Assembly: GCF_027063845.1 (NCBI RefSeq)
Contig: NZ_JAMOQU010000019.1
Location: 97,340 to 161,339, forward strand
Direction of reading: 5' to 3'
Length of the DNA: 64,000 nt
Origin: Thermococcus sp.
GTDB lineage: Archaea; Methanobacteriota_B; Thermococci; Thermococcales; Thermococcaceae
Part shown: positions 5,210-11,191 of the stretch, piece after piece
How the letters are laid out: each line of letters opens with the position of its first letter
How positions within the stretch are numbered: position 1 is the first letter of the stretch
Translations under genes and position numbers: made by a program
Notes under the pieces: generated by a model
Seen by the model: the letters and a program-made list of their open reading frames with translations, nothing else
The model's database searches: none
What the model was told of the DNA's origin: nothing

Positions 5210-7078
5210 TTGGTGGAGAAAATGGACAAGCTTGACCCCAAGATGGAAGGGCTCTTAGACATATTAAAACAGGCTGAAATGGGAAAACTTGTTTTGCCTC
5301 AGTTTCAGAGAGACTTCGTGTGGTCAAGGCAGGATATCGAGGATTTGTTGGTATCTTTGCTTAATGGGTACTTTGTTGGCACATTTCTTTTCCTCAGAAC
5401 AGACCCTACAAAACCTCCATTCAAATGGAGACCAATTCAAGGTGTCCGTCTGCCAGTTGATAGGGAGGGTAACTATATTGCGGAGCCTGAGGCTATGATT
5501 CTTGATGGCCAGCAAAGGATAACGTCACTGCACTATGTTTTTTATGCACCTCCAAAAGATGTTGTCACACCAAAGTACACCACTAGGCGATACCTCTTTT
5601 CTTCTTGAGGCTTGAGGAGTTAGAGAATGGTAATGTTGAAGAAGCCGTGTTTAGCGTAAATGAGGACGATGCCGAGAGACACAAGTACTTTGACAAAGCT
5701 TATCAGTTTGAGAAAAGGATAGTGCCGTTCACGGAGTTATCCAGCAAGGAAAAGTGGAAGGCTTGGAAGGATGGGTTTGTTGATTACCATATTGGAAAAT
5801 ATTCCGATGAATTAAAAGATAGAAATGTTGGATTTGATGAAGGGTGGAAACTAGTCCAGGAGTATAGAAGGTCACTGGAAGAAAAAATTAATGTGTGGGA
5901 GAAGTACATTAACAACCTCTTGGACTTTAAAGTCCCAGTCTTGTACTTGCCAAAAATTGGGCCAGATGACAAACAAAAACTTAGTGAAGTATGCACAATT
6001 TTTGAGAAAATGAACAGTACGGGGGTCCGGTTGTCGGTCTTTGATTTACTAACGGCCAGACTCTACAAGGAGGGTATTGACCTTCATCAGATGTGGCAGG
6101 ATACCCTTGATGTATTTGGTAACATCAAGAAATTATCTGAGGACAATCCAGACCTCTTCAAAGTGTTGCTACTCAGGGCACTGGGGCTTATGAGAGTGCT
6201 CAGGGATAAAGATAAGGGTGAGAAGGAGATTAGCGATGTTAAAAACAGGTCTTTGATTAATCTGTCACCAGTTGGTTTCGAGGAAGATTGGTGGATTATG
6301 GCAAAGTATTTTGACAGAGCCATTGAGAGTTATGAGCACCAATCAAGATGGGTTTGGAGCATTCTTGCCAAAGTGGGTTCCATACAAACCCATACTTCCA
6401 GTATTGGCGACACTTCTTTACTATGTGGAAGGCACTAAGGAGCTATCCCCCACAGAAAAGAGCAGGGCATATACCCTGATAAGACAGTGGTACTGGAGTT
6501 CGGTGTTCACCGAGAGGTATAGCAGTGCGGTTGAATCCAAGTCTCTGAGCGACACATTGGAACTAATAGAAGCCTTCAAGAACTCCGAGTCTGTGCCTTC
6601 AATGGTTGCCGACGCGAGGACCAAGATTACATCCCTAAACTTTTATACTGTCTCTCGGAGTGGGAGTGCAGTTTACAGGGGCATAATGAACTTGATAGCT
6701 CTGAATCATGCGAGGGATTTCCTTCAGGTTGATGCTATTGAGTTCCACAATCTGGAAGACCATCATATATTTCCCCAAGCCTTTCTGAGGAGGCAGGGAT
6801 TTGGAAACAAAGATAAGTCGAAAATTAACACTATACTTAATAGGACGCTTATCACTGATGAGACCAACAGAAAAATCTCAGCGACGTCTCCCAGGGAATA
6901 TCTCAAATGGATTCCAGGAGATGTGGAGGAAGTTTTAAGGCCACACTTCATTGACTCGGAATGCATTGAGGCTATGAAGGAGAACAATTATGAAAGGTTT
7001 TTGAAAAGACGAAATGAGCTTATACTTAACAGAATCAAAGAGCTCATAGGTCAGCCTCAGCCCAAAAACTCAGTTTGA
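5210..7078 (+). pseudogene. DUF262/DUF1524 (GmrSD-like) protein split into three ORFs by two frameshifts
   Basis: ORFs 5210-5608, 5605-6438, 6272-7078 in frames 2-1-2: LPQFQRDFVW and ILDGQQRITSLHYVF (DUF262), then DHHIFPQAFLRR (DUF1524/HNH-like). Region visibly more AT-rich than its neighbours. Confidence 0.8.
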
Positions 7079-7208: not shown

Positions 7209-7985
7209 CTAAAACCCCCTTCTAATCTCGTTGAAGTAATTCAAGAGAACATCCGCCATTTCCCTGGACTCGATTCTAACGCTGACCTCGTGGTTCCAGT
7301 CGAGAGCGGCTTCGCTCCAGTTGTGGCTCCCAATGTACACGATTCTGCCGTCTATAATGACCATCTTCGTGTGAAGGGTCGTTGACGGCGAATCGAAAAC
7401 TACATCGACGCCGTTGGAGCGCAGGTAGTTGTAAGCGGCCCTGTTGTCATCTATGCTGTTTTCAAGCACAACGTGAACGCTCACACCCCTCCTTCTGGCC
7501 TCAACGAGGGCCCTGATTAGGTCGTTGGCGTGGTCGTAGCTGTCCGCGGGGTCGTACTTCATGAGGAACATTGTTACGTAAATGCTCTTCTTGGCGCTTT
7601 TCAAGTCGTTTATTAGTCGCATGTAGTACTCTCCATCGATTAGCAGTTCTGGTTGGGAGAAGTTTTCTTTTGTCCCTTCTTGACCCTTCGTAATGCACTC
7701 CCTGTATTTCTCGGCAAGTTCGATTAGGTTCTCGCGGGTCTGATTCAGCGTTGCGTTCAGGAGGGACAGCTCTTCTGTGCAGCGGGTAAGGTTTTCTCTC
7801 AGCTCGGCCTCTGCACTTTTGTTTTCTACAATAACCGTCTTCGTAATAGTGATTGTTTTTGTGAAAGTTTCTGTTTTCTCCACTGTCACCGTTTTTGTCT
7901 TATCTCCTGTTTCCTGGCCGAGGCATCCTGCGGTGAGAATGACCGCAATGATTATGAACACCAGCACAGAGTTTTTTGGTCTCAT
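7209..7985 (-). CDS. Phospholipase D-like (Nuc-type) lipoprotein
   Basis: Lipobox-like LTAGCLG; single HKD motif HTKMVIIDG and YIGSHNWSEAAL. Confidence 0.88.
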   Translation of the reverse strand: MRPKNSVLVFIIIAVILTAGCLGQETGDKTKTVTVEKTETFTKTITITKTVIVENKSAEAELRENLTRCTEELSLLNATLNQTRENLIELAEKYRECITKGQEGTKENFSQPELLIDGEYYMRLINDLKSAKKSIYVTMFLMKYDPADSYDHANDLIRALVEARRRGVSVHVVLENSIDDNRAAYNYLRSNGVDVVFDSPSTTLHTKMVIIDGRIVYIGSHNWSEAALDWNHEVSVRIESREMADVLLNYFNEIRRGF

Positions 7986-8007: not shown

Positions 8008-8014
8008 TTTAAAT
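8008..8014. promoter_or_regulatory. TATA-like element between PLD gene (-) and C/D sRNA (+)
   Basis: TTTAAAT; ~26 bp from PLD start codon on - and ~30 bp from C box on +. Confidence 0.5.
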
Positions 8015-8043
8015 TACTTATGGGTGAATTGTTGTTGTTTGGG

Positions 8044-8092
8044 ATGATGAGTCTGGAGCCCCCTGATTGGTGACGACGTTTCGCGGGGCTGA
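8044..8092 (+). ncRNA. Candidate C/D box sRNA (2'-O-methylation guide)
   Basis: C ATGATGA - 12-nt GTCTGGAGCCCC - D' CTGA - TTG - C' GTGACGA - 12-nt CGTTTCGCGGGG - D CTGA. Confidence 0.85.
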
Positions 8093-8098
8093 CCGGTC

Positions 8099-8350
8099 AT
8101 GAAGAGACGTATCTGCCGCGAGTACATCGAGGAGATTGAGAGGCTTGAGCGCTCTATCCGCGAGCTTGAGGAGGAGATAATAGAGCTGAGGATGCAGTTG
8201 AAGCTCAAGGTCGACGAGGTCAACAGGCTTGCCATCGAGAACGCGAGCCTAAGGCACAAGCTTGAGATGCAAAAGAAGACTTACCAGCGCATGGTCGAAC
8301 TGCTGAAGAAAATGAAGTTCCCTATAATCCTCCTTCCAGATGATGAGTGA
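8099..8350 (+). CDS. Small coiled-coil protein
   Basis: 83 aa, heptad-rich (EEIERLERSIRELEEEIIELRMQLKLKVDEVNRL). Confidence 0.6.
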   Translation: MKRRICREYIEEIERLERSIRELEEEIIELRMQLKLKVDEVNRLAIENASLRHKLEMQKKTYQRMVELLKKMKFPIILLPDDE

Positions 8351-8645: not shown

Positions 8646-8918
8646 ATGAGGCGTTCGAGAGTTGAAATTATTGCTGATATCCTAGAGTCAGCCAACGGTA
8701 AGGGTGCGACAAAGACCCAGATAGTTTACCGAGCGAATCTGAACTTCAAACTGGCCACGAACTACATACGGTACCTCCTCCAAAAGGGGTACCTTATTGA
8801 AGCCATAGAAGGTAACCGGCGGATATACAGGGTCACGGACAAGGGAAGAACGTTTTTACGCAGTTTCTCAACGATTTACCGTGAACTAGGTGATTTTGAT
8901 TCCTTCGATGGCTTTTGA
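8646..8918 (+). CDS. Winged-helix transcriptional regulator (archaeal HTH type)
   Basis: 90 aa; RSRVEIIADILESANGKGATKTQIVYRANLNFKLATNYIRYLLQKGYLI. Confidence 0.85.
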   Translation: MRRSRVEIIADILESANGKGATKTQIVYRANLNFKLATNYIRYLLQKGYLIEAIEGNRRIYRVTDKGRTFLRSFSTIYRELGDFDSFDGF

Positions 8919-9078
8919 TTTCTTCCAATGTCTCTGAACTTTGGGTCCTTTCGTTTTCTTTTCCGGAACAAAGTTACGGATTTCATGTCAGAACGTTCTG
9001 TTCTAAACTCATTTTCTTGGAGCTTATAAACCTGAAAAATAACATATAGTACGGGCATGTTGCCCGGAGGTGCATGGA

Positions 9079-9657
9079 ATGAAGAGCGGAATCCTGGCCC
9101 TGTTGGTTGTTGGTGTTGTACTGTTTGGACTTGGAGCAGGAACTTGGGCGTACTTCGACGACACGGAGTCAAGCACTGGGAACTACATAACGGCGGACAT
9201 TCTTAACCTTAAAGTCAGCCATGATAACAGCACTTGGTACGATGGAACTGACGTTCCCTCGAGCATTGATTTTGGGATGGTTTATCCCGGTTGGAGTGGT
9301 AGCGATAACGTTTACGTCATGAACGAGGGTGGACTTCCAGGTGAAGTCTATCTATACCTGAACTACTCCCTCGATGAGAACATCAACCCGGAGTCAGAGA
9401 CCAACGGTGGACAGACCCTTGCGGATGTTATATACGTTAAGATTTACTACAACGATGCCCTCGTTTGGGAAGGCTATCTCAAGGACTGGACTTATGACGA
9501 CCCCGGAAATATGCTTGACCTTGGGCCTCTCAACGGCGGGAAGACCGGAAAGATAACGGTTGAGGCGTCTATTGACTACAACGACGCTGGAAATGACATC
9601 CAGGGTGATAAGCTTATCTTCGATGTCCACCTCTACCTCAAGCAGGTGCAGGAGTGA
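9079..9657 (+). CDS. TasA/CalY-like secreted protein with SipW-type signal peptide
   Basis: ILALLVVGVVLFGLGAGTWAYFDDTESSTGNYITADILNL; beta-rich remainder; ATG 9079 preceded by GGAGGTG. Confidence 0.85.
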   Translation: MKSGILALLVVGVVLFGLGAGTWAYFDDTESSTGNYITADILNLKVSHDNSTWYDGTDVPSSIDFGMVYPGWSGSDNVYVMNEGGLPGEVYLYLNYSLDENINPESETNGGQTLADVIYVKIYYNDALVWEGYLKDWTYDDPGNMLDLGPLNGGKTGKITVEASIDYNDAGNDIQGDKLIFDVHLYLKQVQE

Positions 9658-9690
9658 TTCCCTTTAACCTTTTTACTGGGGTGAGCAGGA

Positions 9691-10449
9691 ATGCGCAGTG
9701 CCCTCTTTGCCTTTTTCCTGGTTGGAATCGTTGTATTGGCCGTGGGTTACGGCACATGGGCATACTTCAGTGACATTGAGGTCAGTGCCGGAGACTATGT
9801 GACTGCTGATACCCTTGACCTCGTGCTCACAGACCACACTAGCGATGCTAACGCTCAGTGGGGCTATTTTTACATAGCCCCTGGCAGGGTACCTGGGGTG
9901 AACGGAGGATATAGTGGGGGTGATAGGGCTATTCATATTTTCAACAACGGTACATACCCCAACACCACAGTCGAGATATGGTTCACATTTGAGTGCTATG
10001 AAGACAACGATGGTAATTACACAAATGGACTTCAGCCGGGCCCTGAATCAGATACTCTGCAGACAAATGAGAGTGCTTATCTAATGTTGAATGAAATAAC
10101 ATTAAACACTATGGAGTATACAGATAGTCAGGCTGTCCGTCTCATTTATGACAAAAAACTCACTAGTTCCGGGTATGATTACCTTGCTCCAGAGCTCAAA
10201 AGCGAGTTCAGTCCTGGACAGGAAATTACCCTTGCGGACTTGGCCAGAATGAAATTCGTGGGATTGCCAGGTCCGGAGCCTCTCTACGGGACGTTAGACA
10301 CTAGCAGTAGTCAGTACCTGGATGAGCCCAACACTCAGCTCTCCTTGGATGGTCCCGAAGGAAAAATGCTAAACTCCAGCCAGAACTACTGGCAGGGCGA
10401 CGTCTGTATAATGACCGTCCACGTGCGGTTAGTGCAGTCGGAGCCGTGA
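9691..10449 (+). CDS. Second TasA/SipW-type secreted protein
   Basis: LFAFFLVGIVVLAVGYGTWAYFSDIEVSAGDYVTADTLDL. Confidence 0.82.
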   Translation: MRSALFAFFLVGIVVLAVGYGTWAYFSDIEVSAGDYVTADTLDLVLTDHTSDANAQWGYFYIAPGRVPGVNGGYSGGDRAIHIFNNGTYPNTTVEIWFTFECYEDNDGNYTNGLQPGPESDTLQTNESAYLMLNEITLNTMEYTDSQAVRLIYDKKLTSSGYDYLAPELKSEFSPGQEITLADLARMKFVGLPGPEPLYGTLDTSSSQYLDEPNTQLSLDGPEGKMLNSSQNYWQGDVCIMTVHVRLVQSEP

Positions 10450-10454
10450 GCCCC

Positions 10455-10706
10455 ATGCGGGTTCTCTACGCCATCTTTTTCTTTGTTGCAGTTACGTTCA
10501 CACTATACCTCCTCACCATGTATGAGGTAGGCAACATTGAACCTCAGGCTTCAAGTGTCTTTGATAACGTGACCCAGAACGTCAGTGCCACTCCAGCCGA
10601 GATGACAATGGCCCTTGGAACGATTTCGTTCCTTGCGAGGGTTGGCCTCGCCGTGGTGTTCCTGACAATGGCAGTTTACGTAATCTCCGAGCTGGTGATG
10701 AAATGA
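10455..10706 (+). CDS. Small two-TM membrane protein
   Basis: Two hydrophobic segments; overlaps the downstream start codon. Confidence 0.65.
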   Translation: MRVLYAIFFFVAVTFTLYLLTMYEVGNIEPQASSVFDNVTQNVSATPAEMTMALGTISFLARVGLAVVFLTMAVYVISELVMK

Positions 10707-11191
10707 TGAGGGCTCTCTTGGCATGGCTCGTGGTCGTTTCAATTTTTGTCTACTCGTACTTCGGCTCGTTTGCTTACTTCTCGGATTCTGCTTCAATAAG
10801 GCTGTCGCTTCAAATGGAGCAGACTTCGGTTCAAATCAGCTGTGAAAACCTTACTCTCATTCACTGTCACTGCTCCTGCCCCTGCTTCTGCGGCTACTAC
10901 ATCCTCAGGGGCATTATTGTTAACACCACCGGCAACTCCACGCTTGATGGAATCTATTTCAATAGCAGGGGATGGGTTTTAGGCGGTGTGATTGTTGACA
11001 ATTCAAGCTTTAGGGTTAGAACTGGCCAGTACATATCCATAAACGCTACTCTATCCCCCGGGGTTCACAACGTTTCCCTAATCTTCTACAGGACGAATCC
11101 CTGCAGAAATGGACATACCATGTACTTGGTGTTCTACATTAATGGTGGAGAGTACCCTCTGTCAATCGTTCCAAGGTGGTGTCGGCGATGA
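10703..11191 (+). CDS. Third SipW-type exported protein, Cys-rich
   Basis: FGSFAYFSDSASIRLSL signal; HCHCSCPCFCGYY cluster. Confidence 0.72.
   Translation: MMRALLAWLVVVSIFVYSYFGSFAYFSDSASIRLSLQMEQTSVQISCENLTLIHCHCSCPCFCGYYILRGIIVNTTGNSTLDGIYFNSRGWVLGGVIVDNSSFRVRTGQYISINATLSPGVHNVSLIFYRTNPCRNGHTMYLVFYINGGEYPLSIVPRWCRR

What the first reader, a model, noticed from the sequence alone, without database searches (positions are those of the whole stretch)
8044..8092. Textbook C/D box guide RNA in the leader of a small coiled-coil ORF
Seen directly: ATGATGA (C), 12 nt GTCTGGAGCCCC, CTGA (D'), 3 nt, GTGACGA (C'), 12 nt CGTTTCGCGGGG, CTGA (D). The 12/3/12 spacing fits archaeal di-sRNP geometry. Predicted target complements are GGGGCUCCAGAC and CCCCGCGAAACG; the D+5 rule places 2'-O-methyls at the fifth base of each (C and G). 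It ends 6 nt before the ATG at 8099, so that ORF would start just downstream of the RNA.
Basis: partly seen in the sequence, partly recalled or inferred. Interest (0 to 1): 0.7.

Follow-up and report, generated by a model that had tools for sequence, protein, structure and literature searches.

The report
Known guide RNA before start codon
This is the already catalogued archaeal guide RNA sR23, found in almost all related genomes and placed 5 to 6 bases before the start codon of a small conserved gene; what its two guide stretches aim at could not be found.

Summary
Window 8042-8094 (+) is the Rfam family sR23 (RF01138), a box C/D small RNA: 74.5 bits against a cut-off of 45, E = 3e-16. It occurs in 35 of 37 genomes of the genus and in none of 24 more distant ones. 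A genome with the exact length of T. kodakarensis KOD1 carries it at 1371731-1371782. There the published sR46/Tko-sR50 was sequenced as an abundant, partly circular 62-nt RNA at 1371729-1371790 (PMC9014305). So it is already known, with experimental support in a relative.

Two additions. (1) The D box lies 5 or 6 nt before the start codon of the downstream coiled-coil ORF in nearly all of 38 loci. The published circle includes that AUG (±5 nt), so one transcript probably cannot yield both products. Two genomes have separated them; there the ORF has its own GGAGG-type ribosome-binding site. The exact complements are not conserved, and no rRNA or tRNA site beats shuffled guides, although two control sRNAs give clear 23S double targets. 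The nearly invariant D' guide therefore has no identified target.

The parts
8008..8016 (+). TATA-like box TTTAAATTA, the likely promoter of the sRNA and of the downstream ORF together
   Evidence: Sequence. The expected start lies about 23 nt downstream of a TATA box (PMC4247193), i.e. near 8036-8040. The KOD1 orthologue has a mapped TSS 11 nt upstream of the sRNA match. Inference for this genome.
8042..8094 (+). Box C/D sRNA sR23 (RF01138)
   Evidence: cmscan 74.5 bits, E 3.3e-16, full-length 1-54/54
8044..8050 (+). C box ATGATGA
   Evidence: 100% conserved in 38 loci
8051..8062 (+). D' guide GTCTGGAGCCCC
   Evidence: Mean column conservation 0.987 in 38 loci; variable mainly at the first base. 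Target not found.
8063..8066 (+). D' box CTGA
   Evidence: 100% conserved
8070..8076 (+). C' box GTGACGA
   Evidence: Mean conservation 0.90
8077..8088 (+). D guide CGTTTCGCGGGG
   Evidence: Core TTTCGCGGGG shared by most loci. It differs in five divergent members, which keep GGGG next to the D box. Target not found.
8089..8092 (+). D box CTGA
   Evidence: 100% conserved
8099..8350 (+). Small conserved coiled-coil ORF, 83 aa, start codon 6 nt after the D box
   Evidence: Orthologues in nearly all related loci, with start-codon spacing of 5 or 6 nt. Codon-position conservation 0.80/0.87/0.63, the coding pattern. Only sub-threshold coiled-coil matches in Pfam and NCBIfam.

Best explanation
A box C/D guide sRNA of the known family sR23, most likely transcribed from a promoter just upstream together with the downstream coiled-coil ORF. 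L7Ae, Nop5 and fibrillarin would bind the C/D and C'/D' motifs, protect the RNA body and direct 2'-O-methylation of a target that is still unidentified. The mature RNA runs to or past the ORF's AUG, so a transcript that becomes sRNA is lost as mRNA: the sRNA and the protein compete for the same precursor. Shown here: family membership, conservation, fixed spacing to the start codon, a real coding ORF. Shown by others in T. kodakarensis: expression, TSS, partial circularisation. Inferred: co-transcription in this organism, RNP assembly, methylation activity, competition with translation.
For: Rfam match 74.5 bits. Found in 35/37 genus genomes and 0/24 others. Box and guide conservation far above the flanks. 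The published KOD1 RNA sR46/Tko-sR50 (1371729-1371790, TSS 1371720, 176,232 aligned reads, 188 circular reads in wild type versus 3 in the RNA-ligase knockout) coincides with the sR23 match at 1371731-1371782, and the printed sequence of that interval ends ...CTGACCGGCATGA. D box to start codon is 5 nt in 30 loci and 6 nt in 2; two further loci (L056, L057) also have an ATG in that position. In two genomes the pair is separated: a T-run follows the sRNA and the ORF, 140-160 nt downstream, starts MIK.R.CR.Y after a GGAGG-type site, which confirms the start codon. A 5' overlap of this sort is a known, rare arrangement (about 7% of archaeal C/D genes) and lowers expression of the downstream gene (review PMC7994747, citing Tripp 2017).
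Against: No target was found by a method that recovers the targets of two other sRNAs from the same species, so guide activity is assumed, not shown. The window's own draft genome lacks 16S and 23S, so rRNA tests used relatives. The circle's 3' end is known only to +/-5 nt. No transcript data exist for this organism.
Confidence: 0.9

Rival explanations
1. The element is mainly a cis-regulatory leader: L7Ae binding to the C/D kink-turn directly before the AUG represses translation of the coiled-coil ORF, as in the l7ae 5' UTR, and the guides are incidental.
For: D box 5 or 6 nt from the start codon in nearly all loci; L7Ae binding to a 5'-UTR kink-turn represses translation in Sulfolobus (PMC5539422); no target found for the guides. 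PMC4247193 says some predicted 5'-UTR snoRNAs may be cis elements.
Against: Two genomes keep a strongly matching sR23 when the ORF is moved away and has its own ribosome-binding site; guide bases, not only boxes, are conserved; the orthologue exists as an abundant free, partly circular RNA. A mere leader does not need a fixed 11-nt guide.
Confidence: 0.07
2. A dual rRNA guide whose targets are weak by the scoring used: D guide on 16S near 341-354 (AGGCGCGAAACCUC; 11 Watson-Crick pairs in most relatives, 8 contiguous in this genome's version) and D' guide on 16S near 425 or 1418, or both guides on 23S near 1680 and 1701.
For: Best-scoring conserved sites; the 16S pair lies about 84 nt apart, as is usual for archaeal double guides; 23S 1680/1701 lie 21 nt apart and are conserved in all 11 genomes.
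Against: Shuffled guides do as well in 19-58% of trials; the 23S D' site needs a G-U pair at the methylated base; positions next to the D boxes, which are invariant, do not pair in the 16S sites.
Confidence: 0.3
3. Chance C/D-like sequence with no RNA made.
For: None found.
Against: Rfam E 3e-16, zero chance matches, conservation, expression of the orthologue.
Confidence: 0.01

Closest known systems
Rfam RF01138 sR23 (archaeal box C/D sRNA)
   Same: Full-length match, same boxes, same D' guide and D-guide core
   Different: One base deleted after C'; first D-guide bases differ (CG instead of the commoner GG)
T. kodakarensis sR46 / Tko-sR50 (PMC9014305 Table 1; alias from PMC4247193)
   Same: Orthologous locus: coordinates coincide with the sR23 match in a genome of KOD1's exact length
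   Different: Experimentally seen there; here known from sequence only. Spacing to AUG is 5 nt there, 6 nt here.
C/D sRNA genes overlapping the 5' end of an ORF (Tripp 2017, as reviewed in PMC7994747)
   Same: Start codon just after the D box; presumed shared promoter
   Different: Here the exact arrangement is kept across a whole genus rather than in one species
l7ae 5'-UTR kink-turn of Sulfolobus (PMC5539422)
   Same: An L7Ae-type kink-turn next to a start codon
   Different: Here it belongs to a complete two-guide C/D RNA, and regulation of the ORF is untested

Membership tests
Archaeal box C/D sRNA | C (RUGAUGA), D' (CUGA), C' and D (CUGA) boxes in order | tested here: met
   Sequence
Archaeal box C/D sRNA | Two guides of about 10-12 nt with a short D'-C' spacer | tested here: met
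   12/3/12 nt
Archaeal box C/D sRNA | Complementarity of at least one guide to rRNA or tRNA at D+5 | tested here: inconclusive
   No site better than shuffled guides; orphan guides are also known in true members (PMC7994747)
Archaeal box C/D sRNA | Stable small RNA bound by L7Ae, Nop5 and fibrillarin | not testable with these tools
   Orthologue is an abundant, partly circular small RNA in T. kodakarensis; protein binding not examined
Rfam sR23 (RF01138) | Score above the curated gathering threshold over the full model | tested here: met
   74.5 bits vs 45, model 1-54/54
Rfam sR23 (RF01138) | Conserved D' guide UCUGGAGCCCC and D-guide core UUUCGCGGGG | tested here: met
L7Ae-regulated mRNA leader | Kink-turn near the start codon that represses translation | tested here: inconclusive
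   Position met; repression not testable here

The most novel reading that the evidence does not exclude
sR23 and the coiled-coil protein form an obligate either/or pair: box C/D RNP assembly on the nascent transcript removes the start codon, so protein output reports how saturated the L7Ae/Nop5/fibrillarin pool is; and the nearly invariant D' guide acts on an RNA other than rRNA or tRNA.
Probability: 0.15. Interest if true: 0.6.

Novelty: already known. Interest (0 to 1): 0.25.

Why it matters
The RNA itself is catalogued. What may be useful to a specialist is that its D' guide is one of the most constrained parts of the locus across a genus yet matches no rRNA or tRNA site above chance, and that its overlap with an ORF start is a fixed arrangement, with two natural separations, in which sRNA maturation and translation can be set against each other.

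Tried and rejected
Exact complement search for both guides in 11 genomes: only the sRNA itself is conserved. rRNA target scan with Turner stacking energies and permuted guides: not significant. tRNA scan: not significant for the standard guides; G017 and G022 variants had nominal hits (1-2% of shuffles) on this genome's tRNA-Leu and tRNA-Ser variable arms, several tests were made and the tRNAs are not their own. SRP and RNase P RNA: no long conserved pairing. D box as Shine-Dalgarno (GGGGCUGA): only -7.6 kcal/mol, no better than a control stretch. Internal AGCCCC/GGGGCU stem: possible, but the fold is unremarkable (z -0.59), it does not vary enough to test, and L145 breaks one pair. A weak second hit in G018 (20 bits) is not an sR23 by Rfam.

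Full report
Observation. It is the only C/D-like arrangement in the 64 kb window, with none in 60 random resamples, and the only Rfam gathering-level match: RF01138 sR23, 74.5 bits, E 3.3e-16, window 8042-8094. Other archaeal C/D models match the same place far more weakly and below their own cut-offs.

Distribution. sR23 is present in 35 of 37 genomes of the window's genus and in none of 24 genomes outside it. Of the two lacking it, one is 53% complete and the other (G023) also lacks the downstream ORF. The named records that carry the downstream ORF are Thermococcus and Thermococcaceae/Thermococci archaea.

Experimental support in a relative. The hit in G011, a genome of 2,088,737 bases (the length of T. 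kodakarensis KOD1, from my own knowledge), is at 1371731-1371782. PMC9014305 Table 1 lists circRNA sR46 (alias Tko-sR50) at 1371729-1371790, 62 nt, with 176,232 aligned reads, 188 circular reads in wild type and 3 in the RNA-ligase knockout, and a transcription start at 1371720. Three other published coordinates taken from the same genome do show C/D boxes, which supports the identification. The interval reads CGGGATGATGAGTCTGGAGCCCCCTGAGAGGTGAAGAGGTTTCGCGGGGCTGACCGGCATGA, so it contains the ATG of the downstream ORF. The paper groups junctions within 5 nt.

Coupling to the ORF. In 38 related loci the start codon lies 5 nt after the D box in 30 and 6 nt in 2; L056 and L057 have an ATG in the same position too, although my script picked an earlier one. 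Codon-position conservation (0.80/0.87/0.63) shows that the ORF is coding. Two genomes (G009, G030) keep a strong sR23 (72.4 and 67.8 bits) followed by a T-rich run, and have the ORF about 140-160 nt downstream. There it has its own TATA-like sequence and a GGAGG-type ribosome-binding site, and begins with the same MIK.R.CR.Y. So each part can live alone, and the start codon is correctly placed. G016, a fragmented assembly, has sR23 without a detected ORF, and L018 (G025) has a one-base shift near the start. In the coupled form the ORF has no good ribosome-binding site and no room for a promoter of its own, so co-transcription from the promoter before the sRNA is the natural reading. This is inference.

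Targets. The window's draft genome has no 16S or 23S, so 11 relatives were used. With stacking energies and a Watson-Crick pair required at D+5, the best conserved sites are 16S 1418 for D' (-19.0) and 16S 341 for D (-22.3 in most, -14.6 in variants like this one). Shuffled guides reach these values in 29% and 23% of trials. Searching for two sites within 100 nt gives 19-58% for sR23, against 0-1.3% for the controls sR31 and sR42, whose 23S pairs (2583/2644 and 1957/1998) stand out. A third control, the TK0058 RNA, was not significant either, so the method misses some true guides. tRNAs, SRP RNA and RNase P RNA gave nothing convincing. The D' guide stays nearly invariant (0.987) even in five genomes where the D guide has changed, which argues for a real target that these searches did not see.

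Verdict. A real, ordinary and already catalogued C/D sRNA. The guide-target claim is open. The overlap with the ORF start belongs to a known class (PMC7994747) but is unusually well kept here.

Noticed in passing
window 5210-7078 (+): A GmrSD-type (PF03235) restriction endonuclease gene appears split over three overlapping frames; the first two both match parts of the same domain, so it looks frameshifted or disrupted.
   Followed up: partly
window 7209-7985 (-): Divergent neighbour: a PLD-like nuclease/phospholipase-domain protein with a lipoprotein-like N-terminus (PF13091).
   Followed up: no
window 8646-8918 (+): Sso10a-family winged-helix chromatin protein (NF053610, PF14947) downstream of the coiled-coil ORF.
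   Followed up: no
window 9070-11191 (+): Three consecutive secreted proteins with WAYF(D/S)D-type N-termini; the first has a sub-threshold camelysin (PF12389) match, a possible surface or fibre gene cluster.
   Followed up: no
L058 (G018:C1:618649-618697, -): A second complete C/D-box arrangement with different guides, below the sR23 threshold and matching no Rfam family at gathering level.
   Followed up: partly
L053-L057 (G026, G022, G030, G029, G017): Five sR23 relatives have changed D guides but keep GGGG next to the D box; the reason for that conservation is unexplained.
   Followed up: partly
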